DNA from: Hemileia vastatrix
Lineage: Eukaryota; Basidiomycota; Pucciniomycetes; Pucciniales; Zaghouaniaceae
NCBI GenBank assembly: GCA_030280995.1
Contig: JASXTE010000008.1
Span: 7,295,212-7,359,211, forward strand
Length of the DNA: 64,000 nucleotides
Direction of reading: 5' to 3'
Part shown: positions 5,271-38,082 of the stretch, piece by piece
Layout of the letters: each line of letters opens with the position of its first letter
How positions within the stretch are numbered: the first letter of the stretch is position 1
Notes under the pieces: model-generated
What the model saw: only the letters and a program-made list of their open reading frames with translations
What the model was told of the DNA's origin: nothing
The model's database searches: none
Made by a program: the position numbers and the translations under genes

Positions 5271-5640
5271 AATTAGGGTTAGGTTTATTCAAATCTAATG
5301 TTCTTTTTACTGAAGATTCTCCTGAAGGCTACCTTTCATTTCCCACAAACAGATTTGAATTTGATTCAGTGGTTGCTGAGATATTGACCATTAAAGTTGA
5401 GCCTTTTTTTTCCCAATTTAAATTTTTATTTCATTTTTTTATGTAACAAATTAGGGTTAGGTTTATTTAAATCACATGTCCTTTAACTGAAGATTCTACT
5501 AAAGCATATCTTTCATTTCCCACAAACAGGTTTGAATTAGGTTCAGTGGTTGCTGAGATTTTGACCTTTGAAGTTGAGCCTTTTTTCCAAATTTCACTTG
5601 TCTTATTTCACATTTTTATATTGCATATTTAGAGGATAAG
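5271..5640. repeat. direct duplication, about 180-bp unit, two copies
   Basis: Units start near 5271 and 5450, both with AATTAGGGTTAGGTTTAT. Both continue through CATTTCCCACAAACAG, TTCAGTGGTTGCTGAGAT and a GTTGAGCC plus poly-T tail. The duplication lies just upstream of the TET/JBP-like gene. It may be leader or promoter DNA; function unknown. Confidence 0.8.
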
Positions 5641-5697
5641 GATTCTGAAACTCTTATATTATTATTATCTAGGCATTTCAATTATATAGGCATATAT

Positions 5698-16373: not shown

Positions 16374-17465
16374 TGTAGACAATCCTATAGTACTAGCTAT
16401 AGGCCTTGACAAAGGGAGTTGGAGAAAAACCAGAGAGAAAATCCCCTGTCCCTTTAGAAAAATAGAGTGAGATTTACTTGCTAAAGTAAGTTGGTTCCTG
16501 TTTTGCTAAAGCCCCTTTTTAACACACTTGACTGCTTGATGAGCCAAGAAAGTAGTACCCAGATAGACTACCAGACCAAAGAACTGAAATATAGAACAAG
16601 TCCACACCAGAGACAGCAAAGATACTTGATGTAGGCTGCAAATCCACACCAGAGACAGCAATAATACTTGCTATAGCTTGCAAGACTATAACAGAGAAAA
16701 CAGTTGCTAAAGTTAAGTTAAATGAAGAACTCACTTGCAACAAACACAGCCAATTGTGGCCAGAAAACAGTGAAAACTGAGTGAGGAACAATGATATCAC
16801 CTCCAGATGGTTGTATGATGATTAAGGTTGCCCCAAACTGTCTTATTCACTATGTACACACAGACCACTAACTAAGAGCCCATGTGCACCCACCAATCTG
16901 GCGCCTGTACCTGCCAAATTGCATAAAAAACCCTCCTGGAGCGCTCCCCAACCTCCTAAAACAGAGGGGGACGGGCCGCCCAACGTCGGAGATGCCGCCT
17001 GAGGCGGCCCGGCCTCCCTGAAGCCAGAAAACCAATAAAAACCACTAATCTTCTTAGAAAAATTAGCTACAACTACTAAAACCTTTAAAACACGGAATTT
17101 CACTATAACAACATTGTGACATGAAATATAGAGAAAAATTAGCTTTATCAAATGGTACTAAGCTCTTAACCCTAAGACTTAAGGTTAGCCCGTAAAACAC
17201 GAAAAACAAAATTAAACAGCAATCTTTTTTAAATGAAAAATGAGGAAATGACCCCTTAAAACTCAGAATATGAAAAATGTCTACACGAAATAAAATATAG
17301 AGAAAAACCAGGGCTATCCAATGATAGTACCCACATACCCGCAGACCCAATATCCACGGAATAAAACCAGAAAAATACCAAATTCCTTAACAGATGTCAA
17401 TTAAGACATGCACAAACAGCGCCAAATCACACAACAAAGGCCCCTGCCAATGTTGGAAGACCACA
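16374..17465 (-). repeat. family-2 3' LTR of copy C (1,092 bp)
   Basis: Runs from TGTAGACAATCC to GGAAGACCACA, so read on the minus strand it is TGTGGTC...GACTACA-like with matching short inverted ends. It matches 36998-38082, 47191-48282 and 61459-62391. It contains a 42-bp direct repeat (CCACACCAGAGACAGCAA at about 16602 and 16648) and two copies of an ATATAGAGAAAAA block near 17130 and 17295. Confidence 0.9.
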
Positions 17466-17484
17466 TCCTCCCTCCAATTGAGAA

Positions 17485-18154
17485 TGTCTGCATTCTTTCT
17501 TCATCCACCCACCATGTTTAACCTCCTTTCCAAATCTGCCTCTGAAATGGGCCCCTGCCAATACTGCATCAACAATAATTTAATCTGCGCCATGACACCA
17601 CCTGTCCATCCATACAGAACTTCCTGCGATGTCTGCCAATCTAGAAAGAAGTCCTGCTACAGACCTGGTCTATTATCCTCCGCAACAGCTTCACCTCCAC
17701 CTCAACCTGGTCCATCTTCTTCTAGAACAAAAAGATCTAGGCTATCCATCTTGATTCCCAGATTAATCAAAAAGCTCCACCCTTCCCAGAAGAGTGCCAC
17801 AACCCATAAAACAACTAGTTCCCCCATCCCTGGTCCATCTGATGGTAAAGAACATTCATTCCTTCCTTCAACTTTAAAACTGATAACTTCTCAGTTCCTC
17901 CCTCTTCTGATAGTGATGATAACAATGTAGGATCCATTGCACCACCAACACCAACACACTTGCCCACTATCAAGGCCAAGTTCCAACAACACACATCTCA
18001 ACAGAACCAACTTCTGCTTCACTACTTCCAATCCACTCCTGCTAGAGATCCACAGGACATTGAGAACAGAAGACACCTCATTCACCAGTTCAAGGCTAAT
18101 TCTGAACACTTAATTTCCTCTCTTGATTCACTCTGTAATTCCACTAGCACTTGA
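17485..18154 (+). pseudogene. accessory ORF 1 of family 2, Zn2Cys6-like, antisense to gag-pol
   Basis: Starts 20 bp outside the 3' LTR, reading away from it. Residues about 25-60 carry six Cys with spacing CX2CX6CX12CX2CX6C (17556-17661; second half CDVCQSRKKSC), which fits the fungal Gal4-type binuclear zinc cluster (CX2CX6CX5-12CX2CX6-8C). A Ser/Pro-rich basic linker follows (PGPSSSRTKRSRLS). After one frameshift near 17880, an acidic stretch (SDSDDNN) leads to a helical end with FQQHTSQQNQLLLHYFQS and FKANSEHLISSLDSL, stop at 18152. Zn2Cys6 proteins are sequence-specific DNA-binding regulators. A role in controlling the element is inference. The LTR could supply its promoter. Confidence 0.65.
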
Positions 18155-18204
18155 GTTTGATTCAGAAAAGAAAAATTGACCACACCCTCTATAGGATGTA
18201 ACCA

Positions 18205-18790
18205 CAAACAACCCTCAGTTTTAAGTCTTGGGGGACCATCCTCATTTTATAGTCTTGGGGGACTCAAAAACCCTCAGTTTAAAGTCTTGGGGGACTCAAA
18301 AACCTAAATCATAAACCCAAAACCAGAGATCAACCACATTAAGACACAGAGAAAAAACTAACATTCTGGGGTAATTGTAAATAGAGCTTCCAGCCCATCA
18401 ATTACCCCCAAACTTGCCTTTGCTAAATTCGGAGGCTCCCCCTGTGGATACCCTCCACCAATCTTTCAAAACCAACTCCAACAACAAAACCCTTTTTCCT
18501 AAGTTTATAGTCTTGGGGGACTAAACCAACAAAAATCCTCAGTTTAAAGTCTTGGGAGACTAACACAGTGTTCAGTTTAAAGTCTTGACAGACTAGCCTT
18601 GATAAAATATTGAAACCAGTCAGTTTAAAGTCTTGGAGGACTAACAGAAACCAGATTTCAGTGTAAAGTCTTGATGGACTGGTCTTGATACCATAGATTT
18701 TTCAGTTTAGAGTTTGATGGACTCACTTGATAACATAGCTTTTTCAGTTTAGAGTCTTGATGGACTTACAGAATTTTGCATAAAATGGAC
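18205..18790 (+). repeat. array of about ten 22-nt mini-hairpin repeats
   Basis: Degenerate copies of CAGTTTAAAGTCTTGGGGGACT start at 18216, 18275, 18540, 18573, 18621, 18659, 18703 and 18745, with partial ones near 18250 and 18502. Each has a conserved CAGTTTA and then a 4-bp stem (AGTC/GACT) closing a 5-6-nt loop. Spacing is irregular. It lies upstream of accessory ORF 2 and includes one larger hairpin at 18368-18408. Related copies with a different stem sequence occur elsewhere in family 2. Confidence 0.75.
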
Positions 18791-18917
18791 GCAGCCAATT
18801 TCATGCAGCACACCTCTACAGCCAACCTGCTGAGCTTTCCCCTTCACTTCATCATCTACCCATCACTGACAAAAATCTCCTTCTATCCCTTTTCATCATC
18901 TTTTCTCACCACAGATC

Positions 18918-20468
18918 ATGGCTGGATCTCCTGATGTTAACCCTTCTACTCTCCCTTGCTTCACTACTCCCAAGGACTATGCCTGCAAACAGTGCATCCA
19001 CATGTGCAGAACTTGCACATTCACTCTTCCAAATCCTGAATCCAAATTCTACAACAGGGCTTGTGACTCTTGCTATTTCAAAAAGAAAAGATGTGATAGA
19101 GACTCCAACTACCCTATTCCTCCACCTTCTCCTTCTCACAAATACATCTCCAGATCTCCTACCAGATCCCCAGAGCTTGGTCCTTCCTCTTCCTCTCTGT
19201 CTTCTGCTCCTTCCAGAAGATCCAGAAGCTCAGCTTCCGCACTCTTCCCAAAAGACCAGCCTTAGCCTCACAAGAAACTTCTTTTATCTCCGCCAAATTA
19301 GATCCAAAAGCATCAAGATCAACTCCCAGGCTTCTAGACCGCGTCCAGGCGGCCTGCCCGCCTCATCAAACAGTGAAAATCAGGGCCAAAACCTCCAAAA
19401 ACGGCCAGAAAACAGCCAAATTCATCCAGACAACAACAACAACTCAACCCAACTACCTCCTACTGCTCCGAGAGCAATGCAATCCACCCTTCCAAAGTCC
19501 AAAAGCACCAAAATTTACCAGATTTCTAAGAGACCTGCCAGAGAACCCCAAGAAGAAACCAGAACACCACACACTGCTCCACAACAACAAATTCGTCCCC
19601 AACTAAGACAAAGAAACTACACCTCTCCTCTGTCAGCCAACTATTCTTCTGACAGTTCCATCTCTTCAAAAGCTCTATCCAGAAGAGATCAATCTGCTTC
19701 CAAATCCCCCTCTCCTGCTACATCCTTTAAAAACCCTGGTACTCCATCACCAGCACCTCCTCCAGCTGATTACAACAGAAATAACAACCACAACAACAAC
19801 AACAATCCCACTGCTCCAAATAGGCCCCAGGAACATCAGCCTCCTAGTTCACCTTCTCAAAATTATTCAGAGGAAAACCATGAGAACCCATATCTTTCCC
19901 TAATTGATCCACCCACTATGACCATTACAAAATTGTCAGAGATCCAAATTCCAGCTGCTTACAAATTTGATGAGCTTCCAATATGTAAGTACCAAATTAA
20001 TTATCCCATTTCTTCAACAAAAATAATTACTGATCCAATTCTTCTTGTCTAGTTGACACCCCTCCTCCTGAATCTATTATTGGAGTTGGCCAGCCTCTTG
20101 AAACTTCTTTGACCCTGGATTATGGAGACATGAAGAAACACCTAAGCACCATGTGTTCCAACATGCTAAAAGCCTTTGCCCTCCATGGACCTTTGAATGA
20201 CTTTGAAAAATCCCTGAGAAAGCGCCTGTTGGACAACCACTGGAAAATGTGTAGGATCATTAAACACACCCTTCAGCACTCCATTCCTGCCTCTTCTTCT
20301 TCCTCCTCTGAACTTCCCTCTAATCCAATTCCTTATCATTAAAATCCCTATAATCTCTCCAGCAGGATGCACTTCAAAGAAGACAGTGCTTCCCACAATC
20401 CCAATAAAAAACAAAAACGTCATCACAATCCAGACCAGCCTCCAGAAGATTCATCATCCAGACAATGA
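18918..20468 (+). pseudogene. accessory ORF 2 of family 2, Zn2Cys6-like, spliced, antisense to gag-pol
   Basis: ATG at 18918. Residues about 22-58 hold CX2CX6CX15CX2CX6C (18981-19092; ends ACDSCYFKKKRCD), a Gal4-type cluster with a slightly long middle loop. A Ser/Pro-rich region follows, then (after a frameshift near 19262) a long Asn/Gln/Pro-rich region. An intron at 19985-20052 (GTAAGT...TTGTCTAG, 68 bp) keeps the frame into FDTPPPESII and a helical domain (DYGDMKKHLSTMCSNMLKAF). A TAA at 20340 is read as Tyr in copy D, and the frame then continues to a basic tail (NKKQKRHHNPDQ), stop at 20466. The protein and its intron are conserved in D on the strand opposite to pol. Function unknown; DNA binding inferred from the cluster. 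Confidence 0.68.
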
Positions 20469-20559
20469 GCTCCTGCAAAAAGACTAGAACATAATAATAA
20501 TATAAAATAATTAATAAAAAATAATTTCAGAATTTTTTTTTTTGTTTTGTATCTACTAA

Positions 20560-20930
20560 TATGCTAAAATTAAAAATTAATAAATGAAATGAAATGAAAT
20601 AACATAAATGAAATAAAAGAAAATATAAAAAATAATACAAATGGTATCCCCCAGCCGATTGATGAGCTGATCCCCTGATACCTTACCCACATCCAAGTGC
20701 ACCTTGATGTGGATACACAATTAAATATTTTAAATGATTAACAGAAAAAAAATCAAAATATTTAGAAATTCAGAAGATAATAAAAAATGATGAAACACAG
20801 AAACACATGAAATAAATAATAAATAAAACAGAAAATAGCATTTCCCGGCCAATTGATGAGCCTTTCCCCACCAATGCTTGCACACATCCAGGTGACTCTG
20901 ATGTAGTAACACCCTATATTTTTGATTTTA
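20560..20930. other. two paralogous long stem-loops in the family-2 accessory region
   Basis: Two blocks (about 20642-20720 and 20836-20912). The first is closed by GGTATC/GATACC and the second by GCATT/AATGC around a shared core ATTGATGAGC. Each is followed by a smaller hairpin built on CACATCCA/GATGTRG. The rest is A-rich, and TGAAATGAAA-type repeats surround them. Copy D has both (55720-55790, 55915-55985). No coding potential. Confidence 0.6.
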
Positions 20931-21184
20931 TAATTTTAAACAGCCCCCATAAAATAATTAAAAGAAAAAAAAGAGAAAAAAAGAAAAAATCTAAAACTGC
21001 TATCTAGAAATAACATAACTGCAAAATCAAAGAAAGTCCAGCCCCATAGATGGTCCAATAAGGGAAAGTCCGGTCCATAGAAATGATCACTGGGTGGGCT
21101 CCCTCCAAAAAATAAAAATGATGGGAGACCACCAGTGATCCACCACCAACCCAGAAAAACCAAAGATAAAGAAGCCAGTCCCAA

Positions 21185-21721
21185 ACCAGTTTAAAGTCAT
21201 AGTGGACTTTAAACCTGAATAATAAACAACAGAACTAGAATTCAACTAGGAAAAAAAAAGACTTGAAACAGACATTCTGGGGTAACTGTTCTACAGAGCA
21301 GCCAGCTCATCAGTTACCCCCACACTTTACAAAATAAAATCTAGAAGCCCCCCCCAGGGTACCTTCTAACAAAAACACAACATCCAACACAAAAAAACCA
21401 AAACCAATAAGAGTGAAGAGTCCAGCAGTTGAAAACCCAAGGAAATTCCAGTTTAAAGTCATAGAGGACTAAAACCTGTGAAAAGAAACCAATACTAGGT
21501 TTCAACCAAATTAAGAAATAGGGTTGGAAACAGACAATCTGGGGTAACTGTTGATAAAGAAGCCAGCCCATCAGTCACCCCTACACTTGCCAAGATTGAA
21601 TCTAGAAGCCCCACCCATGGGTACCTTCTAACAAAAAGTTTCCACACAAAAGCTGCTCTGCAACACCACAAAAATTCCAAAACAAAAAAAGAACGTTCCA
21701 TAGTTTATCCTCATTGCGGAG
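21185..21721. other. family-2 post-pol region with hairpins and repeats
   Basis: Two units of about 260 bp, each with a CAGTTTAAAGTCATAG mini-hairpin (21187, 21449), a large hairpin closed by GGGGTAACTG/CAGTTACCCC (21279-21320, 21541-21581), and then CTAGAAGCCCC..GGGTACCTTCTAAC. A third hairpin is at 18368-18408. The D copies are at 55033-55073 and 55295-55336. No ORF. It lies directly after the pol stop, so it may act on the element RNA. Confidence 0.7.
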
Positions 21722-23252
21722 TCAATCTTCTTCATGCCTAGTGCCTCTGGGATAAAACCTCTTCACTTGCTCTGCAGCCACCCTCTTTTTCAAGACTGCA
21801 CCATCCAACTCTTCCAAAACATAAGAACCTCCAGACGCCTGAGATCTGACTCTGTAAGGTCCATTTCATCTGTCAGCAAACATTTTCCCCCACTGACTCT
21901 CCAAACTTCTATTATACACCAAAACCAAACAACCAGGTTTCAAGGGATTCCTGAATCTATGAGCCAACTTCTTGTCCCAGTACCTGACTGATTGATTCCT
22001 AATCTTCATCATTCTAGAGTATGCCTTCTCTTGACATTCCTCTCTACATTCCAACTGTTGTATCCCGGCACAGAGCAATTCTTCTGTTGAGTGCACGTAA
22101 TCCCAATCAATTCCAAGATAAGAGACAGCTTCCAAGTCCACTGGTAGAACAGCTTTCTGACCAAACATAAACTTATAAGGAGAATAGCCAGTTTTCCTCT
22201 TCACAGTGACCCTATCAGCAAATAACACCAAGGGTAAATAATGCCTCCACTTTTCAGCACTATCTCCACACATCTTCACCAAAGCATTCTTGATAACTTG
22301 ATGGCCTCTTTCAACCATGCCTTCAGCTTCAGGATAATAAGGTATAGCCACTCTAACCCTAAAACCAACACTAGCCAAAGCTTCTTTAAATTCGGCACCA
22401 AACTCTGGCCCACCATCAACAGTGACCAACTTCATCAACCCATACCTATAAATCCACTCCTTCTTCAAAAACTCTGCCACATTCTTGGCAGTCAAATTAA
22501 CCAGAGGCACTGCCTCAACCCAACCAGACAAATCATCCCTAGCAACAATCAAGTATTTATACCTGCCCTCTTTAATATGGACAGCATCCAGACTGACCCT
22601 TCCAAAAACAGTTGATTCACCAGTAGCACGGCCGACCTCTTTAGGTTTCAAGTGACTTCTTCTTTGACATTCTTCACAAGATTGAACCCAACCCTGCACA
22701 GCCAACTTCATGCCTGGCCACCAAAATCTGTCTGCTACTCTTCTATAAGTCTCCCCAAAGCCTCTATGACCAAGGTCTTAATGCAAAGACTTCAAAACCA
22801 ATTCTTGACACTTCTTCTGAGTCACCACCACTTGAGGATTTGGATGTCTCCTCCTCATCAACCGCCTTCCTGACACATAAAATCCAGGACTCTTCTTCTT
22901 GATTGCCAACCAAGTATCATCATCACAACTATCTGGCCTCTCCAAGGTCAACAGATATTCCACCAAAATAAAATAAAACCCAGACTGACCCCAGGTCTCA
23001 TCTTCAAAATCCAACAAAACAACATCCAAGGGTACAATTCTGTCATCAAAATCACCAGTGTGAACATGAGCCAATTGAGCAGCCCAACCAGGACACCAAT
23101 CCTTAAATTTTGGCACGTCCTTCTCTTTCCACTGAACCTTGTGAGAATCCAGTTCACTAACAAAAACACCCTTTTCCAATTTTGCGCTGTCCCAAACTAC
23201 AACTCCATCTTCATCAACAAAAACATCCTGATCACCAGACTCAAGATCAGAT
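21722..23252 (-). pseudogene. pol: family-2 pol C-terminal part: pre-integrase domain and integrase
   Basis: From 23252: an acidic linker, a conserved region (LLDFEDETWGQSGF, LMRRRHPNPQVVV), an in-frame TAA at 22778-22780, the zinc finger (LGHRGFGET, CEECQ), and the integrase core with its Asp/Asp/Glu in DAVHIKEG, VDGGPEFG and YYPEAEGMVERGHQ. TGA at 21866 replaces the Trp of ADRWNGPYRV. The frame then resumes to RGTRHEED and the stop at 21722. The start of this segment joins RNase H at 31839 once F is removed. Confidence 0.85.
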
Positions 23253-24055
23253 TGTCACGCGCCACGTGACACTCAAGGCAAAAGTAGCTCATTAAATCAA
23301 TACTAAAGGGTTCAAATCCATACTCGAAGCGCAGAAAGCAACTCTCCATAGCAACTGCGACTTTCCTTTGTGTACTCGCTATTCAATTGCGCTAGCCTAA
23401 AACTCTAAATCTAAATTAGTCAATCTCTCAATAGTGTGTCTTAGTCTTTGTCCCAATAAGCAACGCACAGCGCAATAGTTAATATAATAGTACATTAAAA
23501 GGTTTATGAAATGTCTGCGGGTTATTAAGGGGTAGTGAGCATGGACTGAATGGTTAGTGAAGGATTAAGGGGTTAACAGATGTTAGTGAGGAGGGTCCAG
23601 GTGTAACGGATATATTTTAAATGGTTTGTGGTGTGCGGAATAGTGGATGAGTATGAGGTCAATGCGAGGAGGAGTAAAGGATATAAAAGGGGCTGGGTTT
23701 TTGGTTCGACATTCCTTAGAGTTAAATTATAAAACGTATTTATAGTTAATAGTGATAAAACTCTAAGTGAAAATCATTATTATTGTATCTTTCTTTATTT
23801 TCTCAATAATCATATCTAAATCCTAAATCTTTGATTTTTGAGTTTCCAACCCTTTGTGAGATCTTAAGAATTTTAATATTACCGTTCAATTATATTAGAA
23901 TCCTTCTCGAACATAACTCGAAGCAGTAGTTCTTCCTTCGAGTCATCCTCGAATCACTTCCTCGAACTATCCCTCTGTGCTTCGAAGAAGTATCTGAACC
24001 TTTTATCTCACTTGCAGGAAAATCCTCGACCTTGTGCGTGGGTCTTCCGGTGACA
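23253..24055 (+). repeat. 5' LTR of chromovirus F
   Basis: TGTCACGCGCCACGTGACA at the start and CCGGTGACA at the end. It is rich in TCGA sites and has a TATA box at 23682-23689. Confidence 0.93.
23682..23731 (+). promoter_or_regulatory. TATA box and predicted transcript start of F
   Basis: TATAAAAG at 23682-23689. About 30-36 bp downstream, AGAGTTAAATTATA (23718-23731) is the stretch that pairs with the primer-binding site, so the RNA should start close to 23718. LTR 2 has the same layout (31460-31467, 31496-31509). Confidence 0.6.
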
Positions 24056-24056
24056 G

Positions 24057-24070
24057 TATAATTTAATTCT
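24057..24070 (+). promoter_or_regulatory. self-priming primer-binding site of F
   Basis: TATAATTTAATTCT lies 1 nt after the LTR. It is the exact reverse complement of 31496-31509 in LTR 2 (one mismatch to LTR 1, where one base has changed). It does not start with TGG as a tRNA site would. The Tf1 element is known to prime cDNA from its own folded-back 5' end, and this arrangement fits that mechanism. Confidence 0.7.
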
Positions 24071-24132
24071 CCGTAGTTCTCATTCTTTGCACTACTACGT
24101 CCCTTTTCAGGTGTTTTCTCTAAATTCTTAAA

Positions 24133-25320
24133 ATGGCACCTGTTCAACGCACTCCTCCTACAGGCCCTACTACTAGAGCTCGCGCCAGAGGCAGGCCAAC
24201 AGCCACTAGGCTTGTTTCCCGCACTCACTCCTTGGAGCCACTCGACCTTAGGGAACGGCAACATTCAGTCCAATTGGTAGAAGACATCCCACAAGATTTC
24301 GATGATTCCAGTGATGATGAAGAAGGAGAGGATACAATGCACGAGGCACCATCCGCCCCTGCTAACCACCCTTCTGGTCAACCTTCAGAAACTGGACCAT
24401 CCAATTCTCTGGAAGATTTCATGAGAATTTTCATGAAGACCCTTTCAAATTCAACGTCTTCAGAGGGATCTAAATTCAAAACTCCTTCTATGAAATCTCC
24501 TGATAAATTTGATTGAGAACATCCAGACAGATTGCGACCCTTCTTGCAAACCTGCAAGCTCCTGTTCCATAATGACCCTCAAACCTTCAATAACGACCAA
24601 TTGAAAGTTGTTTATGCTTCTTCATTCCTGGCCAGAAAAGCAGCAAGATGGCTCAAACCTTATCTTCTCATGCTCTCTTCAACCGAAACCCACTTACTTA
24701 TTGATAACTGGGAAAAGTTCAAAGACCAACTCTTCACATTGTTTGGTGACCCTAATGAAACTGACAACGCAGAAATTGAACTTGATTTCCTTTGAATGAG
24801 TGATAATGGGAAAGCCTCTGAATATATCTCGAACTTCAGAGCGCTTCAAACTCGAGTAGGTTGGAATGATGCTGCCCTTAAGTATCATCTCAAAAAAGGA
24901 CTTCCTTCCAGGATTCTGGATCAGTTAAATCTTCACGGTCAGAAGATGACTACTTTAACAGATTTAATGGATTGAACCCTCAAAATTGACGGCGTTTACC
25001 TAGGACGACTTAAACATTGTCAATACGCCAACAAATCTCAAGGCTTAAATTTCAAATTGGGACCTTCTTCACACCCACAAACAACTCAATCCTCCTTGAC
25101 TCAATCCAAACCTATTAAGGGAAAGGACAAACCTCGACTGAAACGCTCGACCCCAGGCAATATCAGTAAAGTACTGGATCATAAAGGGGAACTTAAAGAA
25201 GCTGAGAGGAAGAGGCCAACAGATAATGGGTTATGTATGTATTGTGGGGGTAAGCACAAGCTGGAAGATTGTGTAAAATTGAAGGAAAGAGAAGGTACTA
25301 GTTTGAAGCCAAAAAACTAG
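24133..25320 (+). pseudogene. gag: Gag of chromovirus F, three in-frame TGA
   Basis: ATG at 24133. The N-terminus is basic and disordered (TRARARGRPTATR) with an acidic patch. The capsid region has RLRPFLQTCKLLF, AARWLKPYL and FKDQLFTLFGDP. Near the end is a CX2CX3-type zinc knuckle start (LCMYCGGKHKLEDC). TGA codons at 24514, 24793 and 24973 interrupt one continuous frame. In each case the preceding base is T, and Arg (CGA) is plausible there. The gag stop TAG is at 25318-25320, immediately after the frameshift site. Confidence 0.85.
25311..25317 (+). promoter_or_regulatory. minus-1 ribosomal frameshift site (A AAA AAC)
   Basis: The heptamer is in the correct phase for the gag frame (CCA AAA AAC TAG) and ends at the gag stop. 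The pol frame is minus 1 and is open only from 25302. Downstream structure was not evaluated. Confidence 0.8.
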
Positions 25321-28300
25321 TAGATAGTTTACTTGTGTGCAAAGCAAACTATCTTATCTCTCCCAGTGCACAGAACCTCCAAGTCTTAAGGACTGGAGTT
25401 GCCTTAAACCGCTTGAGATTCATTCTTTTTAAGGAGGATATCCCCTTCAGTTGTCTTATAGACTCTGGAGCTTCAATTTCTTTTGTCAGTTTATCTTTTG
25501 CCGAGAGGTTACAGCTGACATTTACAGATATTGATTGAACTCCAATTTACTTGGTTGAATCAGAGGAACCCAAATATTGGGTCAGTAAGAAAGTTTTATG
25601 GGTTTTCAACTTTCCAAATTTTCCCCCCTTTGAGTGGGAACTAACAGTCTTGGACGCCCCAAGGATGGACGATACCATTCTTGGCCATGAATTTTTAACG
25701 CATTGGAATCCTGAAATTGATTGGACATGGGGATTGATCCCCCCACGGACTAAGTATATTTCTGATTCTTCAATGCATGTCAATAGGGAATTTAACAACC
25801 CGCCTGACAATGTCCTGCTAGAGGACAAATCTCTTCCAGATGACTTGCAAGCATCTGATCTTTCTTTAAATGAGAAATTGGCTAACCCTTCTAGCTCAAT
25901 GACTTCACTCGAAGAGGACTTAAATTGTCTCGAAGTAATCAAATTATGCTCTCTCAATTCTGGTCTTCCCTCAACAGATTCTCTCGAAGATGATGAGGAC
26001 GACCAAATCGACGTTGAAGCCATTAAATCGACTCTACCAGAAATCTATCATGATTTCCTTGATGTTTTTTCAATCTGCAAGGCCGATAAGTTACCACCTC
26101 ATCAACCCTACAACCATCAGATAGAGTTAATAGGTCCAGTACCTCCGGCAGGTCCTGTCTATTCTTTGTCAAAGGACAAATCTCAAGTTCTTCAAGACTA
26201 CATTTCAGAGAATGTAGCCAAAGGTTTCATCAAAGCCAGTAAATCGCCAACCGGCTCCCCTGTCCTCTTTGTAAAAAAGAAGGATGGTAGTCTTATGTTG
26301 TGTGTTGACTATAGAAAGCTCAACACAGTCACTAAGAAGAATGCATATCCTGTTCCTCCTATGTCATTGCTTCTTACCCTTTTTAATTGTGCTAATTTCT
26401 TTTCTAAAATTGATCTTAGAGGCGCTTACAATCTTATTCACATTGCGGAAGGTCATGAACCACTGACTGAAATGCGCACTAGATTTGGTAGTTTTGAATA
26501 TTTAGTTATGCCTTTTGGATTGTGTAACGCACCATCTAATTTTCAAACTTTTGTCAATGACATCTTTCAAGATGTTGTCGAACAATTTGTCGTTGTCTAT
26601 TTAGATGATATTTTAATTTTCTTGAAGACACTGGATGAACATATTCATCATGTTCGACAGGTTTTAAATCGACTTCAAGGTCATGGACTCTACGCCAAGC
26701 ATAATAAATGCGAATTCCATCTTAAATCTATTGATTTTTTGGGTTTTACATTATCCACTGATGGTTTAGTCATGGATGAAAAAAAATTTCAAAAGGTCCT
26801 GGAATGGCCTGAGCCCAAATCCATTAAATCCCTCCAAGGATTTTTGGGTTTTGCAAATTTCTATAGAAGATTTATTAAAGATTACTCTAAAACTATTTCC
26901 AATCTTACTTCTCTTCTTAGAAAAGATATTCCTTTTGTTTTTACTTCTACAGCACGAAAGGAATTTGAAGCATTGAAGACGGCATTTACCACAGCTCCAA
27001 TTCTTCAACACTTTGATCCTACTGCTTTGACAATAGTCAAGACAGATGCGAGCGATTATGCTATTGCAGGGGTCATTTCTCAATTGAATCCGGAAACAAA
27101 ACTGTTTCATCCTGTTGCTTTTGAGTCACGCAAACTCATTGCAGCAGAATTAAATTATGAAATTCATGACAAAGAGCTTTTAGCTATTATTCATTGTCTT
27201 AAAAAATGGCGTTCTTTTCTTCTCAGCCTAGATAGTCCTTTTCAAATTTTAACAGACCATAATGCTTTGAAATACTTTATGTCTTCCAAAGTATTAACCA
27301 GGCGTCAAGCCAGGTGGGCTGAATTTCTGTCTGAATTTCCCTTTTCTATTTCCTATCGCCCAGGTAAGAACTGCATTGTCCCAGATATCTTGTCACGTCG
27401 GGGGGACGCATTTGTTGACAAAAATCCAGCAAATGTGAAATAAATCTTCAACGAATCAATTTTAACGACTCATCAACTTAATTCAATGACAATTCAATCG
27501 TTTCAAAATCCACTATCCAACATCCTTGAAGCTCAGTCGGAGGACGATTATTGTTTAGGGTTAAAAGTCAAAATACTCTCGAAGCAAGGGGCCAAAAGAT
27601 TTAGTATTGAATCAGGTCTATTAGTCTTCGAAGGTAGAGTAGTCATACCCGACAACAATGAGATAAAATTATGGATTTTCAACAGTCAACATGATTCTCC
27701 ATTAGCTGGTCATTTTGGGGTTGTTAAAACCTACCAGTTAATAGCGAGGGATTTTTTCTGGCCAGTTATGACCAGGGAAATCAAGGCCTTTATAAAAGCT
27801 TGTTACAAATGTAATAGGAATAAGGCTCCCCGTCACCGGAAGTATGGGTTGCTTCAACCACTTCCTATTCCCTCTAAACCTTGGGAATCTTTATCGATGG
27901 ATTTTATTTCTCAACTTCCTCTTTCTAATAATTTTGATGCTATATTAGTAATAGTAGATAGATTCTCAAAAATGTCTATTTTCATTAAAACCACTACTAC
28001 TGCTACTGCAGAAGATCTGTCAAAATTGTTTTTAGAATACGTATTTTCCAAACACGGCTTACCTAATGATATTATTTCAGATAGAGGCTCATTGTTTGTA
28101 TCCACATTCTGGACTCAACTTTGTCGACAACTCAATATCACGAGGAACCTCTCCACAGCCTATCATCCCAAAACCGATGGGCAAACAGAAAGGGTCAACC
28201 AAATCCTCGAACAATACCTTTGAATGTATGTCAGTTACCAACAAGACAATCGGACCACATGGCTACCATTGGCCGAATTTGCTTATAATAACTCGACTCA

Positions 28301-28946
28301 TTCTTCGACACAACAATCTCCTTTTGAAACTGTTTATGGAAGACATCCTCGATTCAATTCAATCCATGTAGGAACTAATCATCCTGCAGAACATTATCTT
28401 CGAACCATATCACGACTCCAAGAGGAACTTAAATCAAATCTGGAATTAGCAGTTCGAAGGTACAAGGAACAGGCTGACAAACATCGACAAACTGCTTCTC
28501 CTTTTAAACCAGGCAACAAAGTATGGCTCGACGCACGGAACATTCAAACGACTCGACCATCAAAGAAACTGGCTGAAAAAGGCTTGGGGCCATTCAAAAT
28601 TGACTCTGAAGTCTCTAAAACTGCATTTCGACTCAAGCTACCTCCTAAATGGCAGGCTATTCACCCTGTTTTTCTCGTATCTCTCCTGGAACTGGCTTGA
28701 GAAACATACCCAGGCAAGAACCAACCTCCTCCGGAACCGGTCTAAGTAGAAGACCATCTAGAGTGGGAAGTAAGCCATATCCTTGATTCAAGAATGCGCA
28801 AGGGGAAACTTCAATACCTCGTGGAATGGGATGGCTTCCTCGATGACTCAGAAAAAACATCCTGGGAACCAGCCATCAATGTTTCTAACGCCCCTGAACT
28901 CCTAAAATCTTTTCATCTTAAATACCCTTTAAAACCAAAACCTTAA
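25317..28946 (+). pseudogene. pol: Pol of chromovirus F: PR, RT, RNase H, IN, chromodomain
   Basis: Minus-1 frame relative to gag. Protease CLIDSGASISFVS. RT with VKKKDGSL, DYRKLNTVTKKNAYP, YLVMPFGLCNAPS and the catalytic YLDD. RNase H has KTDASDYAIAGV and TDHNALKYF. The integrase finger includes CYKCNRNKA, and its core shows MDFISQLP, SDRGSLF and HPKTDGQTERVNQ. Next come the GPF region (GLGPFKID) and a C-terminal chromodomain (EWEVSHILDSRMRKGKLQYL, VEWDGF, TSWEPA). Chromodomains steer such elements to heterochromatin. Stops: TGA at 25538, 28222 and 28699, plus TAA at 27441 and 28744. The remaining sequence is intact and homologous throughout. Confidence 0.92.
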
Positions 28947-29957
28947 AACTCTCTTTTTCTTTTCTCTGTTTTTTTTCTTTCTTTTAAAATCTAAAACATT
29001 TTTATTTCTAAAAATTTCTTTTGTTTTCTTCTTTATTCTTTTTCTTTTCAAAATGTTTCAACCTTCTTTTTTAAAAAAAAAGTAAAATTAAATTAAATTA
29101 AAATAAAAGTATAATAAAATAAAAATAAAAATAAGATAAAATAAAATAAAAAAAAAAAATTTCTTCTCAATTTTCTATATACATCACCACACAATATGGG
29201 GGGCGGACTTGCTAGCAAGTCGGCAACCTTGGACCCAAACTCACCATAGATTGAACACACATTGAGCTATTGATAAAGGAACCATACAATCAGGGATGAA
29301 CACCACTCAGCAGAACAGTTTTAGGTGGGTGTTCAAGTAGAGTTCAGTATGGGTTCAGTCTGAGTTCAGTCTGAGTTCCATCTGAGTTCCATCTGAGTTC
29401 AGGTTGAGGACTTGCTAGCAAGTCCACCCCCTATATTGCGTAGTGCATTTTTTTAAAATTTTATTTTCCTTGAACTATCAAAATTCTTCACGAACATTAC
29501 ACAACCATCTTTCTCGAACTTCACTTTAACTTCTAAATCAATTTTTTAAATTCTTTGAAACAAATTACTTCTTTCTTCAAAATTCTCTTAAAATTTTTAT
29601 TTTTTCATCTCTTCTTTTTTTTTCTTTTCTTTTTTCAAATAACTAAAATCCCTCAAATCTTCAATTAACAAACTTAAATAACATTTTTTTTCTTTATTCT
29701 TTTCATTAAATTTTCTTTACAACAAATTTTTTTCAATCAACTATATATATATTTTTTTTTCATTCAGACATATTCTTTCAAAATTAAAAAAAAAATTTCT
29801 ATTTAATTCTTTTTTGTTTTTTCTCTGTCTTTTCTTTGTTCTTATTTCTCTCAAAATCTTATAAAAAATAAATATTAAATTCTAAATAAAATAACAAAAA
29901 TAAAATAATTAAATACAAATTGTTTTTACATTTATTTTCTTCTTTTCTCTTTTTATT
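28947..29957. other. AT-rich tail of F
   Basis: Mostly T- and A-rich low complexity with no ORF on either strand. A CACTA-like MITE sits at 29185-29445. Confidence 0.6.
29185..29445. mobile_element. CACTA-like MITE, copy 2 (261 bp)
   Basis: Same termini as 3068-3317, with 3-bp CAT duplications on each side (29182-29184, 29446-29448). About 95% similar by eye to copy 1. It has additional GAGTTCAGTCT/GAGTTCCATCT units in the internal array near 29340-29400. Confidence 0.88.
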
Positions 29958-30925
29958 TTAAATTTTCTCTTTTATCTTCTCCCGAACCAATTCCTTCATC
30001 TTCTCCAAAATTTCCCTTGTCTCCTTTCTACATTTTTCAAAGTTCTCCCCCTCTCCTACCAGAATCAATTCCCCAAGTTCAAGTAACTCCTCGGCTACGT
30101 CGAAGGAAGCAGCATTGACAATTTTATCAATCTCGCCACTCAAGTCTTCAATATATTTTGCTCGTCAAACCTGACGAGGTTTCTTCGACCATACTTGATC
30201 GAGGGTTTCTTCGTTTTCCTCCCTAGAGGTAACAGTTGGTAATCTATCCTCCACCGACACTGCCACTTCCACAGAAGTGGGTCCCACAAGGGTTGCTTCC
30301 ACATTTGAAGCTTCCGTCGTAGGGACCTTGATGATGACATCTGAATTCTAAAACAGAATCATCAGTAATTAAATTTATAAATTATAAAAAGGTGAACTTA
30401 CTTCGAAGATTGGGTCAGGCTCCAAAAATAATCTAGGAGTGACCTTCTCTACCACCTCGCTTTCCTCTTTTTCATCTTTGATGACCACCCATTGCTTTTT
30501 CGGGGTTTCCCTCAAGATGGGAATTTCTTCTTCCTCCTCAACGACCCCCCTCTTGTTCGCAGCCCTAGCTACCCAGATGTTCCATCATCCTCAACTTCTT
30601 CCTCATTTCCCCCCACCGATTTATTGTCCCCAATGGACAAATCCCAAATTTCCTTGACTACTTCCTTCGTTTTAGGGATCACCCAATACTTCGTCTTAGT
30701 AAACCGACTCTCAATGTTGGCATTCTTTGCTAAGGCATCACAAGTCACTCTTCTCCATCAGCAAAACTCGCACTTCTGGCGAGGCCCTTGTGTCGCCGTG
30801 CTCTCCACGCAAAAATACTCCATCAACTCGCAAGCCGTGCAAGTCTTCGAAAATTGCCGTGTGACAACACCCCCATCCGCTTTAGGGTGTGGAGGCGTGG
30901 GAGTCAGTGTAGGGAAATCCGTCAT
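29958..30925 (-). pseudogene. accessory gene of chromovirus F, Zn2Cys6-like, spliced, antisense to gag-pol
   Basis: ATG at 30923-30925. Residues about 28-62 contain six Cys spaced CX2CX6CX12CX2CX6C (about 30740-30840), the same spacing as family-2 accessory ORF 1. One in-frame TGA sits inside the last CX6C where Arg is likely (CEFC then WRRVTCD). After a frameshift near 30583, an acidic linker leads to an intron at 30348-30401 (GTAAGT...TGTTTTAG, 54 bp). Exon 2 stays in frame through one more TGA (in TTGA context) to a helical, charged C-terminus (DVAEELLELGELILVGEGEN, ILEKMKELVREKIKEKI), stop at 29958-29960. The shape is a short N-terminus, zinc cluster, disordered linker and helical end, as in family 2. 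A DNA-binding regulator is inference. Confidence 0.68.
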
Positions 30926-31030: not shown

Positions 31031-31833
31031 TGTCACGTGCCACGTGACACTCAAGGCAAAAGTAGCTCATTAAATTAATACTAAAGGGTTCAAATCCATA
31101 CTCAAAGTGCAGAAAGCAACTCTCCATAGCAACTGCAACTTTCCTTTGTGTACTCGCTATTCAATTGCGCTAGCCTAAAACTCTAAATCTAAATTAGTCA
31201 ATCTCTCAATAGTGTGTCTTAGTCTTTGTCCCAATAAGCAACGCACAGCGCAATAGTTAATATAATAGTACATAAAAAGGTTTATGAAATGTCTGTGGGT
31301 TATTAAGGGGTAGTGAGCATGAACGGAATGGTTAGTGAAGAATTAAGGGGTTAGCAGATGTTAGTGAGGAGGGTCCAGGTGTAAAAGATATATTTTAAAT
31401 GGTATGTGGTGTGCGGAATAGTGGATGAGTATGAGGTCAATGCGAGGAGGAGTAAAGGATATAAAAGGGGCTGGGTTTTTGGTTCGACATTCCTTAGAAT
31501 TAAATTATAAAACGTATTTATAGTTAATAGTGATAAAACTCTAAGTGAAAATCATTATTATTGTATCTTTCTTTATTTTCTCAATAATCATATCTAAATC
31601 CTAAATCTTTGATTTTTGAGTTTCCAACCCTTTGTGAGATCTTAAGAATTTTAATATTACCGTTCAATTATATTAGAATCCTTCTCGAACATAACTCGAA
31701 GCAGTAGTTCTTCCTTCGAGTCATCTTCCAATCACTTCCTTGAACTATCCCTCTGTGCTTCGAAGAAGAATCTGAACCTTTTATCTCACTTGCAGGAACA
31801 TCCTTGACCTTGTGCGTAGGTCGTCCGGTGACA
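31031..31833 (+). repeat. 3' LTR of chromovirus F
   Basis: Starts TGTCACGTGCCACGTGACA, a perfect 19-bp palindrome, and ends CCGGTGACA. Compared with LTR 1 it has lost several CpG sites (for example TCGA to TTGA twice near the end). Confidence 0.93.
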
Positions 31834-31838
31834 CAGAT

Positions 31839-33600
31839 CCAGCCAGTTTAGCCTCTTGGGGGAGGTCAGAACAATTGTCCAGTTTAGCCTCATGGGGGAG
31901 GAGAGAAAAATCTCAGAACCCTTTGTGCTGGCCCTAATCACTGGAACATCTTCGTCAAACTCTTCAGAATCAGAATCCTCATCTGTAGGTGGCCTCCTTG
32001 ATAATCCATCAGGCATAGTAAACGTTTTACCTGGTTTGTGTACCAGGTCAAAAGAAAAATGTTGAATAAATGCCACCCACCTAGTCATTGGAGCTTTTGG
32101 AAGACTAGGTGTATTGATCATCTGAACCAAAGATTTTGCATCCACCTGCAGCTCAAAATGCTGCCCCCACAAAACCGTCTGTAGCTTCTTTAAAATTTTA
32201 GCTACGCCACACAATTCCAACTTAGGTTGAGAATACCTAGATTCCACCTCATTAAACACCACAGACTCATATCTTACTGGCCTGAACCTCCCAGTCTTAT
32301 CCTCCTGAGACAAAACAGCACCAGCAGCAATATAACTTGAGTCCACTGCCAGATAAATTTTTCCAGCACCAACCCCATAATCCAACTTGTGAAGAACAAT
32401 ATCTTCACCAACAACCTTTTTCAACTTCTGAAAAGCCTCTTCACACTCTTCAGTCCATTCCCAATCTGCATCTTTTCTGGTCAACCTCCTTAAAGGTGAA
32501 GCCAACAAAGAAAAATCCTTAATAAAAATCCTGACATATACACTCACACCCAAAAATCCCCTGAATTCAGTAGTACTTTTAGGCCTTGGCCATGACTGGA
32601 TTTTATTAATCTTCTTCTTCGCCATAATCCTCCCCTCTTTACATACCACATGACCCAGAATTTCCAAAGCAGGAACACAACAACAGAATTTTGACCCTGA
32701 AATGGTCAAACCAGCCTCTTCAATCCTGAACAACACTCTCTCTAGAGTTATTGCATATTCGCACATAAACCTCCTTATGCCAGGGTTCTCCGCTAACACC
32801 TCAATACCATAATCAGTGGATGGTCCTTTAATTCCACCATCATCAATTAAAATACCCACATGAGTAGGAACCTCATCCTGAAAAATCCAAGCCATCTGTG
32901 CTTGATATACTGCCACTGAATTAGTTTCTCCCAGAGGAAACCTAGTGAGCTGAAATCTTCCCAAAGGAGTCTCAAAAGTTGTGAGAAGCCTTGAATCTGT
33001 ATGGAGTTCCCTCTCATAATAAACACCCATAATATCACCCAAAACATAACACACCCTTCCAGCAAAAGCTTCAACAAAATCCTCTGCACCTGGTGGCATA
33101 CCAGCGTCCTTGGTAGTGACTCTATTCAAGGCTCTAAGATCATGAACCACCCTCAACTTTCCATTCTGCTTTTTTACACAGAAAAATGGACTTGAGTAAC
33201 TGGATGTCGATTGTTCATATAACCCAGTCCTGACTCTTTCCCTAACAATCTCTACAAAATCCTCTCTAATAGCAGCTGGAATCAGAATAGGTTTGATTTT
33301 CCAAGGTTCATGGCAAACAACAGGAATCAAGTAAGGTTCCCCATAAGAGTGCTTCAATACACCCCTTTCCTCCTCAACAAACGCCACAGCTTTTTCCCTT
33401 AGCACAATAATGTGCAACAACAACTTCTTTTCTTCATCAGACAACCACCCATCAGGACCAAAATTAACAACTTTCAATCTTTCCACAGTCACCCTAGCCG
33501 TCTCTACAAATTCTGGAGGATTCTTCACCAAAGAACTACAGTACGGATCTCTTGACAAAGGAGGTCTCTTCAAAGGCGGATACTAGCCAACAGGCATAGG
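31839..33600 (-). pseudogene. pol: family-2 pol: RT and RNase H of copy C (part before F)
   Basis: An open frame of about 590 codons cut at 31839 by the F insertion. RT blocks: KQNGKLRVVHDLRALNRVT, CYVLGDIMGVYYERELHTD, and a catalytic box written LIDDGGIKGP rather than YxDD. RNase H: YLAVDSSYIAAGAVL, ELQVDAKSLVQ, then LVHKPGKTFTMPDGLSRRP. After SRRP comes an acidic linker that continues at 23252. The intact frame suggests a young copy. The frame also contains two mini-hairpins (31844 and 31880, plus-strand coordinates). Confidence 0.88.
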
Positions 33601-35075: not shown

Positions 35076-36902
35076 CCCTCACCAAACTTTCAGCAGAATC
35101 ACAGATGTATTCCACCTCCCCAGAAGACACCCTTCTTCTGGTCAACAACTTTTTCTGCCTATCATCCAACCCTAGACTGATAGTATACAATTCCCCATAA
35201 TATAGTGAAAACTGACCCTGATTCATCATTTCCAGGACAGAGTCCATAACATTAACTTGACCAGACACTACTGGCCTCTCAAAGTGAGCTCTTTGCTTCA
35301 CCATCTTCATCCTAGAAGCTTCTTGAGGACCAGCACCACCAACAGGTTTACCATTAACAGGAACCAAACCAGATCCCTCACCAGAACCTCTGACTCCAAC
35401 AGGCTTTGGTAATGAAGCCAAAGGGACATCCGCCTCAGAGTCAGAATCCACCTCCATTGGCATTGGATCACCATTCATATCCAATGCGCCAAAACTAGGG
35501 GGGCCCATATCAGCCATACCCTTCTGCATCTTGTACAGCTTCTCTTTGCTGTACCTCATCCTAGCTGCACTCAGCTTAGGATCCCCCTTTGAAGCATTTG
35601 GCTTTGGATGGGCCTGAGAACTGCTCTTAGGCCTTCCCACCTTTCCTGCTTCCACATCATAAACACCAGCCAAGCATTCACCACCTGACTTTCCACCACA
35701 AGAATACAACTCCAAACCACCAAAGGAAGTAGAAAACGAGACCTTATTGACCTCCTTCCCCTTTCCCTTGACGTCCTCATCTACCTTAACAGAAGACTTC
35801 CCCTGATCAGGAATCTCCTCAAACCTTGGCCTCCTTTGATTGAGACCACCCCTTCTCCTGACCAAATCAACAGGAGCCTGCCCCTCACTGGGCTTCACAA
35901 AAGAACCGTCAGGGAACTTAAAAACCCTGCCATCAAACTCCACTTTTCATTCAGACACATCTCTGTTCAGTGCCCAACAATCATTGGACCTGTGCCCCCT
36001 CCTACTGCAATAAGAGCAAACCCAAGGATCACTCCTACCAGCCCTTCTTTCAAAATCTATAGACTGAGAAGGTGCCTTATTAACCCTCTTGGCCTCCTGA
36101 ACAAAAATGTGCATCTGCTTTGTAAGATCAGCCAACTGCTCCACTATTGGGTCCCTATCCTGTTTGGGAACCTGCACCAAATTTTTCTCCTCCTTCTTCT
36201 CCCTAACTTCCTCTTCAGCCAAAGCCTCACTTACTTTGCTGACATACTTGGCACACCCCTCCTGATAGGTGTCCACAGCCAATAACTTCAAATGGGCCTC
36301 AACAGCCTCCTTCACCTTATCCAAGGCAGGCAACTTCTGATCCCCATTAGAAAGAGTTTTCATCAATTCCTTTCTTGACAACTCCTTCAAAACATCCATC
36401 CTGACATCTCTAGCCAGGGCAGACCAAAAAACATCCTTGGCAGCATTTTCATGTGCCAGCTCCTCCCCTTCCACCAAATATTCCACCACAGGATCAAACT
36501 GTAGCAGAAACTTCCTGTAACTATGTAAGTTACCAACACCACCATAAGATTTCCATTCACTGACAACCTTGTTCAGATCCACCATAGTGAATCTGACACC
36601 CCATCTATCCACCATCTCCCTACACAGCAATTTCCAATCCCTCTTCTTGTATCCAGACATGGCCACAATCTCCTTCTCCACTGACCTATCACCAATGAAG
36701 AAGATAATCTGCTTCACCATGTCCAGGTAGGAAGCACCATCCACTCCAGCAGCAGTTTCATACTTCTCTAGTAACCACTTGACATCCTCCCCATTAAACT
36801 TGGTACCATCCCAAGTTTTAATTCTCACACACTCCCTAACCATCACAGAAGGAGGACCATCCCCCCCACTGACAGTCACCACAGGAATAGAGGAACCAGA
36901 AG
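35060..36902 (-). pseudogene. gag: family-2 Gag of copy C
   Basis: Start chosen at MASGSS (36900-36902), which copies D and E share. The capsid-like region has IKTWDGTKFNGEDVKWLLEK and VWRFTMVDLNKVVSEWKSY-like helices, then a CCHC knuckle (WVCSYCSRRGHRSNDCW). An in-frame TGA at 35944 sits where D reads Gly (SEGKVEFDG). The remainder (FKFPDGSFVKPSEGQAPVDL and on) is a long disordered, charged region leading into protease. Confidence 0.85.
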
Positions 36903-36976
36903 CCATTCCTCCAGACCAAAACACCAAAAAGAGCCAACCAAAGAAAACCGAGATTCCAAAGAACTAGCAAGTTCTA

Positions 36977-36997: not shown

Positions 36998-38082
36998 TGT
37001 AGACAATCCTATAGTACTAGCTATAGGCCTTGACCAAGGGAGTTGGAGAAAAACCAGAGAGAAAATCCCCTGTCCCTTTAGAAAAATAGAGTGAGATTTA
37101 CTTGCTAAAGTAAGTTGGTTCCTGTTTTGCTAAAGCCCCTTTTGAACACACTTGACTGCTTGATGAGCCAAGCAAGGAGGCCCCAGATAGACTACCAGAC
37201 CAAAGAACTGAAATATAGAACAAAGTCCACACCAGAGACAGCAAAGATACTTGATGTAGGCTGAAAATCCACACCAGAGACAGAAATAATACTTGCTATA
37301 GCTTGAAAGACTATAGCAGAGAAAATAGTTGCCAATGTTAAGTTAAATGAAGAACTGACTTGCAACAAACACAGCCAATTGTGGCCAGAAAACAGTGAAA
37401 ACTTAGTGAGGAACAATGAGATCACCTCCGGATGGTTGTATGATGATTAAGGTTGCCCCAAACTGTCTTATTCACTATGTACACACAGACCACTAACTAA
37501 GAGCCCATGTGCACCCACCAATCTGGCGCCTGTACCTGCCAAATTGCATAAAAAACCCTCCTGGAGCGCTCCCCAACCTCCTAAAACAGAGGCAGGCAGG
37601 CTGCCCGATGTCGGAGATGCCGCCTGAGGCGGCCCGGCCTCCCTGAAGCCAGAAAACCAATAAAAACCACTAATCTACTTAGAAAAATTAGCTACAACTA
37701 CTAAAACCTTTAAAACACGGAATTTCACTATAACAACATTGAGACATGAAATATAGAGAAAAATTAGCTCTATCAAATGGTACTAAGCACTTAACCCCTT
37801 AGACTTAAGGTTAGCATGTAAAACACAAAAACAAAATTAAACAGCAATCTTTTATAAATGAAAAATGAGGAAATGACCCCTTAAAACTCAGAATATGAAA
37901 AATGTCTACAAGACATAAAATATAGAGAAAAACCAGGGCTATCCAATGAGAGTACCCGCAGACCCAATATCCACGGAATAAAACCAGAAAAATACCCAAT
38001 TCTTTAACAGATGTCAATTAAGAAATGCACAAACCGCGCCAAATCACACAACAAAGGCCCCTGCCAATGTTGGAAGACCACA
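36998..38082 (-). repeat. family-2 5' LTR of copy C
   Basis: TGTAGACAATCC to GGAAGACCACA, about 97% like 16374-17465 by eye. Confidence 0.9.

What the first reader, a model, noticed from the sequence alone, without database searches (positions are those of the whole stretch)
17485..30925. Two distant gypsy families both carry antisense Zn2Cys6-type genes between pol and the 3' LTR
Chromovirus F (29958-30925) and family-2 copy C (17485-18154, 18918-20468) each have, on the strand opposite to gag-pol, genes whose N-terminus has a Gal4-type cysteine pattern. F and C ORF 1 share the identical spacing CX2CX6CX12CX2CX6C. All have a disordered linker and a helical C-terminus, and two have frame-preserving introns. 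The polymerases and priming modes of the two families are quite different, so a shared recent origin of the whole element is unlikely. I infer capture or convergence on an element-encoded transcription factor, perhaps acting on the LTRs. Antisense ORFs are known in plant gypsy elements, but I know of no described Zn2Cys6 version.
Basis: partly seen in the sequence, partly recalled or inferred. Interest (0 to 1): 0.92.

Follow-up and report, generated by a model that had tools for sequence, protein, structure and literature searches.

The report
Antisense zinc-cluster genes in retrotransposons
Two distantly related jumping genes in what is probably a fungal genome each carry, on the strand opposite to their replication genes, what looks like a gene for a small zinc-binding DNA-reading protein whose two halves are in swapped order, which may let the element control its own activity.

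Summary
In six frames of 64 kb the Zn2Cys6-type pattern occurs three times, all antisense between pol and 3' LTR (ORF1 and ORF2 of gypsy copy C, one in chromovirus F); resampling predicts 0.005. Most antisense parts show codon periodicity; the spacers do not. C and F reverse transcriptases are 29% identical. Corrections: F's gene is broken, C ORF2 changes frame, dN/dS cannot be told from 1, no domain reaches the Pfam cut-off. New: half-motifs match the opposite halves of Gal4-type domains, as in a circular permutation, and a 22-bp motif with dyad AGTC-N6-GACT recurs eleven times around ORF2, with its only other copies in the window in copy D. Best reading: an element-encoded zinc-cluster DNA-binding regulator from an antisense transcript. 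Antisense genes at this place are known (plant Retand, Grande; fungal Boty brtn); a zinc-cluster version appeared in none of ten literature searches. The protein and contig collections gave no relative of the antisense proteins; the host genome search did not complete (16 calls).

The parts
16374..17465 (-). 3' LTR of element C (gypsy, gag-pol on the minus strand)
   Evidence: 95.4% to 36998-38082; flanks ACGG / ATGG fit a 4-bp target duplication with one change (my reading), and an uninterrupted copy of the target lies near 8253
36998..38082 (-). 5' LTR of element C
35947..36963 (-). C gag (named by position; no profile run on it)
   Evidence: ORF; C-D dN/dS 0.26
31786..33582 (-). C reverse transcriptase / RNase H
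   Evidence: PF17917, PF17919 above cut-off, PF00078 just below (28.5 against 29.6 bits)
21866..22777 (-). C integrase, cut off from RT by insertion of F
   Evidence: PF17921, PF00665
17484..18154 (+). C ORF1, antisense gene of 206 aa; exons 17484-17844 and 17895-18154; starts 18 bp inside the edge of the 3' LTR
   Evidence: translation and splice
17556..17657 (+). ORF1 six-cysteine domain, CX2CX6CX12CX2CX6C
   Evidence: first half matches Zn_clus positions 16-35
18918..19265 (+). C ORF2 N-terminal part with the second six-cysteine domain (18984-19094)
   Evidence: second half matches Zn_clus positions 1-16, 20.0 bits; codon periodicity 0/300
19267..20342 (+). C ORF2 middle and C-terminal part in a different frame; exons 19267-19984 and 20053-20342, intron 19985-20052
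   Evidence: D does not share C's stop codon
56147..56922 (-). Same ORF2 C-terminal part in copy D
   Evidence: 94% identity, no gap in 776 nt, intron 68/68 identical
18216..18766 (+). Array of 22-bp motif CAGTTTAAAGTC-N6-GACT, nine copies with 0-2 mismatches between ORF1 and ORF2, plus one near 18703 that has lost a base of the left arm
21187..21208 (+). Further copy of the 22-bp motif
21449..21470 (+). Further copy of the 22-bp motif
55144..55165 (-). Motif in copy D, identical to that at 21449
55407..55428 (-). Motif in copy D, identical to that at 21187
16987..16997 (.). CGG-N5-CCG dyad in C 3' LTR (also 37612 and 47658)
   Evidence: present in 3 of 4 LTRs aligned
23253..24055 (+). 5' LTR of chromovirus F, inserted in C (match limits; true ends within a few bases)
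   Evidence: 97.1% to 31031-31833; CAGAT on both sides
25539..27443 (+). F reverse transcriptase / RNase H
   Evidence: PF00078, PF17917, PF17919
27444..28223 (+). F integrase
   Evidence: PF17921, PF00665
28746..28946 (+). F chromodomain
   Evidence: PF00385, 48.1 bits
29958..30925 (-). F antisense gene, broken in this copy; candidate intron 30348-30401
   Evidence: codon periodicity in all three parts 0/300
30740..30841 (-). F six-cysteine pattern, interrupted by a stop codon
31031..31833 (+). 3' LTR of F

Best explanation
Both gypsy families carry antisense genes, starting just inside the 3' LTR, for a small protein with an N-terminal zinc cluster of Gal4 type whose two half-motifs are in swapped order, a low-complexity linker and a family-specific tail. 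The likely route: an antisense promoter in or near the 3' LTR makes a spliced mRNA; the introns persist through retrotransposition because the genomic RNA is the other strand; the protein binds DNA and tunes the element's own transcription, most likely at the repeated AGTC-N6-GACT motif around ORF2 in family C. Shown: pattern, position, strand of the pattern, coding signal, a second copy of part of ORF2 in D, swapped match of halves (weak scores), motif array. Inferred: transcription, splicing, zinc and DNA binding, target, effect on the element. The rivals below are not all exclusive of this, so the odds do not add to one.
For: Three of three six-Cys matches lie in this position (chance 0.005 per window). 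Three-base periodicity, shuffles reaching the observed value: ORF2 N 0/300, ORF2 middle 1/300, F parts 0/300 each, ORF1 exon 1 14/300; ORF1-ORF2 spacer 122/300, three other spacers 166, 201, 205/300. No gap between C and D in 776 nt that span ORF2's C-terminal part, its intron and 138 nt past C's stop, against 14 gap runs in 1190 nt of the adjoining spacer; no stop in the 188 codon pairs compared. Half-motif matches: ORF1 first half to Zn_clus 16-35 (14.8 bits), ORF2 second half to Zn_clus 1-16 (20.0 bits); GAL4 and AlcR both align with halves exchanged, PUT3 by its second half. ORF1 and ORF2 N-termini align at E 1e-4. Motif: 12 exact AGTC-N6-GACT in 64 kb, expected 0.60, largest 3 in 100 shuffles; 10 in C, 2 in D; 12 at spacing 6 against 0 to 3 at each of the ten other spacings from 2 to 12; the commonest dyad of the C region, 10 copies against at most 5 for any dyad in 60 resamples.
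Against: No domain passes the Pfam cut-off. Two of the four half-pieces tested give no profile hit, nor does F's first half. F is one broken copy, and its sense strand is open for 167 aa over the same DNA. Identity of C to D is hardly higher in ORF2 than in the spacer: exon A 91.8%, exon B 95.8%, spacer 92.3%, while the intron is 100%; dN/dS of ORF2 is not different from 1, nor from RT of the same pair. Periodicity is not significant in ORF1 exon 2 (51/300) and the last ORF2 exon (39/300), and does not tell the strand. C ORF2 changes frame and its stop is not shared by D. AlphaFold2 on two-sequence alignments gave low confidence and conflicting models (pLDDT 60.7 and 56.0) and no structural match for the first. 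No relative in the protein collection. AGTC/GACT is not the CGG half-site recalled for Zn2Cys6 factors; motif copies may descend from one another, so their count is not independent.
Confidence: 0.5

Rival explanations
1. The two families took up the gene independently from a host (or other transposon) family of zinc-cluster proteins that already had swapped halves; the element only carries it.
For: Likeness is confined to the N-terminal domain; tails show no similarity. Polymerases are far apart. Sharing of additional ORFs between very different retroelements is in print for rotifers (PMC5408684, passages).
Against: Same orientation and same place next to the 3' LTR in both; part of ORF2 is also in copy D. 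No host relative was found, but no positive control shows that the collections searched hold this host group.
Confidence: 0.35
2. The antisense RNA, not the protein, matters (double-stranded RNA or interference with the sense transcript); the reading frames are a by-product.
For: Antisense non-coding transcripts of retroelements are described (PMC7264820, passages). F's frame is broken, C ORF2 changes frame; ORF2 exons are hardly more alike between C and D than the spacer.
Against: Codon periodicity and the absence of gaps in ORF2; six-Cys pattern three times.
Confidence: 0.15
3. The six cysteines form another zinc fold that binds RNA or protein (a nucleocapsid-like accessory), not a Gal4-type DNA reader.
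For: Profile scores below cut-off; uncertain fold; basic residues fit RNA binding as well.
Against: Both half-motifs align with GAL4 and AlcR halves; C-[DE]-x-C-x2-[RK]-[KR]-x2-C is present in ORF1 and ORF2.
Confidence: 0.2
4. The cysteine patterns are chance in antisense reading frames.
For: F is broken and its sense strand has the longer frame.
Against: Expected 0.005 in the window, seen 3, all in the same position.
Confidence: 0.03

Closest known systems
Antisense additional ORFs between pol and 3' LTR of plant gypsy elements (Retand TRP28, Grande gene23, RIRE2)
   Same: Same place and orientation; Retand proteins are predicted to bind DNA and about half of those elements have repeat arrays in the same region (PMC11963269, passages)
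   Different: Domain in Retand is TRP28 (PF04195), not a zinc cluster; plant hosts; no intron mentioned in PMC7264820 (term count 0)
Boty brtn antisense gene of Botrytis cinerea gypsy elements (Zhao et al. 2011)
   Same: Fungal gypsy element with an antisense gene between pol and 3' LTR (PMC7264820, passage)
   Different: Not compared: the paper is not held and I had no BRTN sequence; the passages read in PMC8365987, PMC4227169 and PMC7264820 name no zinc cluster for it
Zn_clus PF00172 (GAL4, PUT3, AlcR)
   Same: Six cysteines in two CX2CX6C halves; halves resemble Gal4-type halves
   Different: Halves in opposite order; whole domain under the gathering score
HTLV antisense gene from a promoter in the 3' LTR
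   Same: Antisense gene reading inward from the 3' LTR (promoter mentioned in PMC7264820)
   Different: HBZ is a bZIP protein (recalled); no sequence relation claimed

Membership tests
Antisense aORF between pol and 3' LTR (aORF-3R) | Lies between pol and 3' LTR, opposite strand to gag-pol | tested here: met
Antisense aORF between pol and 3' LTR (aORF-3R) | Present in more than one copy of the family | tested here: met
   C and D share ORF2's C-terminal part; D is cut off beyond it, so ORF1 and the zinc cluster are seen in one copy only; F has one copy
Antisense aORF between pol and 3' LTR (aORF-3R) | Conserved about as well as pol | tested here: inconclusive
   ORF2 dN/dS 0.68 (0.35-1.59), RT 0.64 (0.41-1.06), integrase 0.88 (0.42-2.55), gag 0.26 (0.14-0.48), gag2 0.41 (0.25-0.72)
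Antisense aORF between pol and 3' LTR (aORF-3R) | Antisense transcription | not testable with these tools
   no RNA data
Zn_clus PF00172 | Six Cys in two CX2CX6C halves | tested here: met
   (in F with a stop codon inside the second half)
Zn_clus PF00172 | Profile score above gathering cut-off | tested here: not met
   15 and 16 bits for the whole pieces, cut-off 21; best half-piece 20.0
Zn_clus PF00172 | Order of halves as in GAL4 | tested here: not met
   scores individually weak
Zn_clus PF00172 | Predicted fold | tested here: inconclusive
Zn_clus PF00172 | Zinc and DNA binding | not testable with these tools
   bench work
Boty brtn | Sequence homology to BRTN | not testable with these tools
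   paper not held, no sequence at hand

The most novel reading that the evidence does not exclude
Fungal gypsy retrotransposons of two clades encode a circularly permuted Gal4-type zinc-cluster regulator from an antisense, intron-bearing gene, and in one clade carry its own operator array (CAGTTTAAAGTC-N6-GACT) around that gene: a retroelement with a complete built-in transcription factor and target circuit.
Probability: 0.2. Interest if true: 0.85.

Novelty: new variant of a known kind. Interest (0 to 1): 0.62.

Why it matters
What antisense genes in LTR retrotransposons do is open; for plant Retand only a predicted DNA-binding capacity is reported in the passages I read. A zinc-cluster version with candidate target sites inside the element would make the regulator hypothesis directly testable, suggest that transposons exchange regulatory domains across distant clades, and add a swapped-order form to a large fungal transcription-factor family (size recalled). 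It also warns that some predicted fungal Zn2Cys6 genes may be transposon genes (inference).

Tried and rejected

Literature: ten searches. Papers seen as passages: PMC2864245, PMC11963269, PMC8444563, PMC7264820 (plus its section 6), PMC5408684, PMC8365987, PMC4227169; term counts only: PMC12210899. Other titles were seen as search listings. Nothing seen describes a zinc-cluster antisense gene in a retrotransposon; that holds for these searches of an open-licence library only.
Full report
Check of the observation. All six frames of the window were scanned for the Zn2Cys6-type spacing. It occurs three times, at + 17556-17657, + 18984-19094 and - 30740-30841, where chance gives 3 hits in 600 resamples of the window. 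Each lies between pol and the 3' LTR of a gypsy element and on the strand opposite to gag-pol. The element maps are clear: C runs from 38082 down to 16374 with LTRs 95.4% alike, and F (LTRs 97.1% alike) sits inside it between RT and integrase of C. F has RT, integrase and a chromodomain; C and F share only 29% in RT and 23% in integrase. A third family in the window (element A, pol end at 9093, terminal repeat match up to 8763, my reading) leaves about 330 bp there, and no six-Cys match lies in it.

Is it coding? In C the antisense frames show three-base periodicity (ORF2 N-part 0 of 300 shuffles reach it, middle part 1 of 300, ORF1 exon 1 14 of 300; ORF1 exon 2 at 51 of 300 and the last ORF2 exon at 39 of 300 are not significant). 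The spacers show none: ORF1-ORF2 spacer 122, C spacer 20500-21700 166, two F spacers 201 and 205 of 300. The three F parts are at 0 of 300. A second copy, D, keeps ORF2's C-terminal part: no gap in 776 nt that span this part, its intron and 138 nt past C's stop, and no stop in the 188 codon pairs compared, while the adjoining 1190 nt have 14 gap runs. Against this, base identity is hardly higher than in the spacer: exon A 257 of 280, exon B 273 of 285, spacer 92.3%, and the intron is identical, 68 of 68; and C's stop is not shared by D. dN/dS is 0.68 (0.35-1.59), not different from 1; gag of the same pair is 0.26 (0.14-0.48), gag2 0.41 (0.25-0.72), RT 0.64 (0.41-1.06), integrase 0.88 (0.42-2.55). 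Since C's own LTRs differ by about 4% (4.6%, 3.6%), much of the divergence dates from after insertion and pulls all these values to 1 (inference).

Limits. F's gene is broken in this copy: a stop inside the zinc pattern, a change of frame, and a further stop; its sense strand is open for 167 aa. C ORF2 changes frame between the zinc part and the rest. Copy D is cut off before the zinc domain, so the domain itself is seen once per gene in this window.

The domain. Pfam finds Zn_clus below the cut-off (15 and 16 bits against 21). The first half of ORF1 matches profile positions 16-35, the second half of the model, at 14.8 bits, and the second half of ORF2 matches positions 1-16, the first half of the model, at 20.0 bits. 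ORF1's second half, ORF2's first half and F's N-terminal piece give no hit. In the solved structures GAL4 and AlcR each align with both halves exchanged, and PUT3 aligns by its second half to the first half of ORF1 (E-values 0.45 to 3.1, so individually weak). All the GAL4, PUT3 and AlcR alignments printed point the same way: the half recalled to hold the DNA-reading helix comes second. This suggests a circular permutation of the zinc cluster. Structure prediction did not settle it.

The motif array. Reading the spacer between ORF1 and ORF2 showed a recurring 22-mer, CAGTTTAAAGTC-N6-GACT. AGTC-N6-GACT occurs 12 times exactly in the window against 0.60 expected, 10 in C and 2 in D; with the full motif at up to 3 mismatches there are 17 rows, all in C and D: 11 sites in C, 2 in D, and 4 reverse readings of these. 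At other spacings of the same arms the whole window has 3 exact cases (spacing 2), 1 (spacing 5), 2 (spacing 8) and none at 3, 4, 7 and 9 to 12. The eleven units that I lined up were picked by their arms (at most one mismatch), so the high arm conservation there (seven of eight columns at 2.0 bits) is partly built in; the fairer figure is that the ten units found in the C region by the left block alone, AGT[GT]TA[AGT]AGT, all have GACT on the right, nine at N6 with both arms intact and one with a base of the left arm lost. One central spacer column has 0.2 bits and the columns to the right of the motif mostly 0.0-0.7. The two D sites equal their C partners in 44 of 44 bases where the surrounding spacer is 92% alike. 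Intervals are irregular (27 to 226 bp in the array). I infer a protein-binding site array; an RNA role is not excluded, and shared descent of the units means that the counts are not independent. The LTRs carry no copy of the motif; they do hold a CGG-N5-CCG dyad in 3 of 4 copies, in a GC-rich patch.

Mechanism. Most likely the 3' LTR or its inner edge drives an antisense, spliced mRNA for a DNA-binding regulator that acts on the element, with the array upstream of ORF2 as the prime candidate target in family C. Introns survive because the sense genomic RNA cannot splice them. Nothing here shows transcription or binding.

What is known. Antisense genes at this place are established in plants (Grande, RIRE2, Retand) and in the fungus Botrytis (Boty brtn). 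Retand's TRP28 protein is predicted to bind DNA and about half of those elements have repeat arrays in the same region, a close parallel in layout. The zinc-cluster domain in such a gene, its swapped halves and its presence in two distant families appeared in none of ten literature searches. Hence a new variant of a known kind.

Host. Not identified. The genome search tool did not answer in sixteen calls.

Noticed in passing
18216-18766, 21187-21208, 21449-21470, 55144-55165, 55407-55428: 22-bp motif with dyad AGTC-N6-GACT, confined in this window to the post-pol region of the C/D family.
   Followed up: yes
29178-29448 and 3061-3320: Repeat of about 260 bp, 93% alike, with palindromic ends (GGACTTGCTAGCAAGTC): looks like a small non-autonomous DNA transposon, one copy lying in F's spacer.
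   Followed up: partly
5578-6051: ORF with a Tet-like 2OG-Fe(II) oxygenase domain (PF20515, E 1.7e-15); such genes are reported in fungal DNA transposons (PMC12730594, search listing only).
   Followed up: no
56922: Copies D and E of the C family are joined tail to tail here, D cut inside ORF2 and E inside pol: an inverted junction.
   Followed up: no
57150-58509: Direct duplication of about 680 bp inside pol of copy E (94% alike).
   Followed up: no
16970-17020: GC-rich patch in the C LTR with CGG/CCG dyads, shortened in copy E.
   Followed up: partly
L001: A gypsy RT 56% identical to F's lies in a contig filed under a cyanobacterial genome: probably eukaryotic contamination.
   Followed up: no
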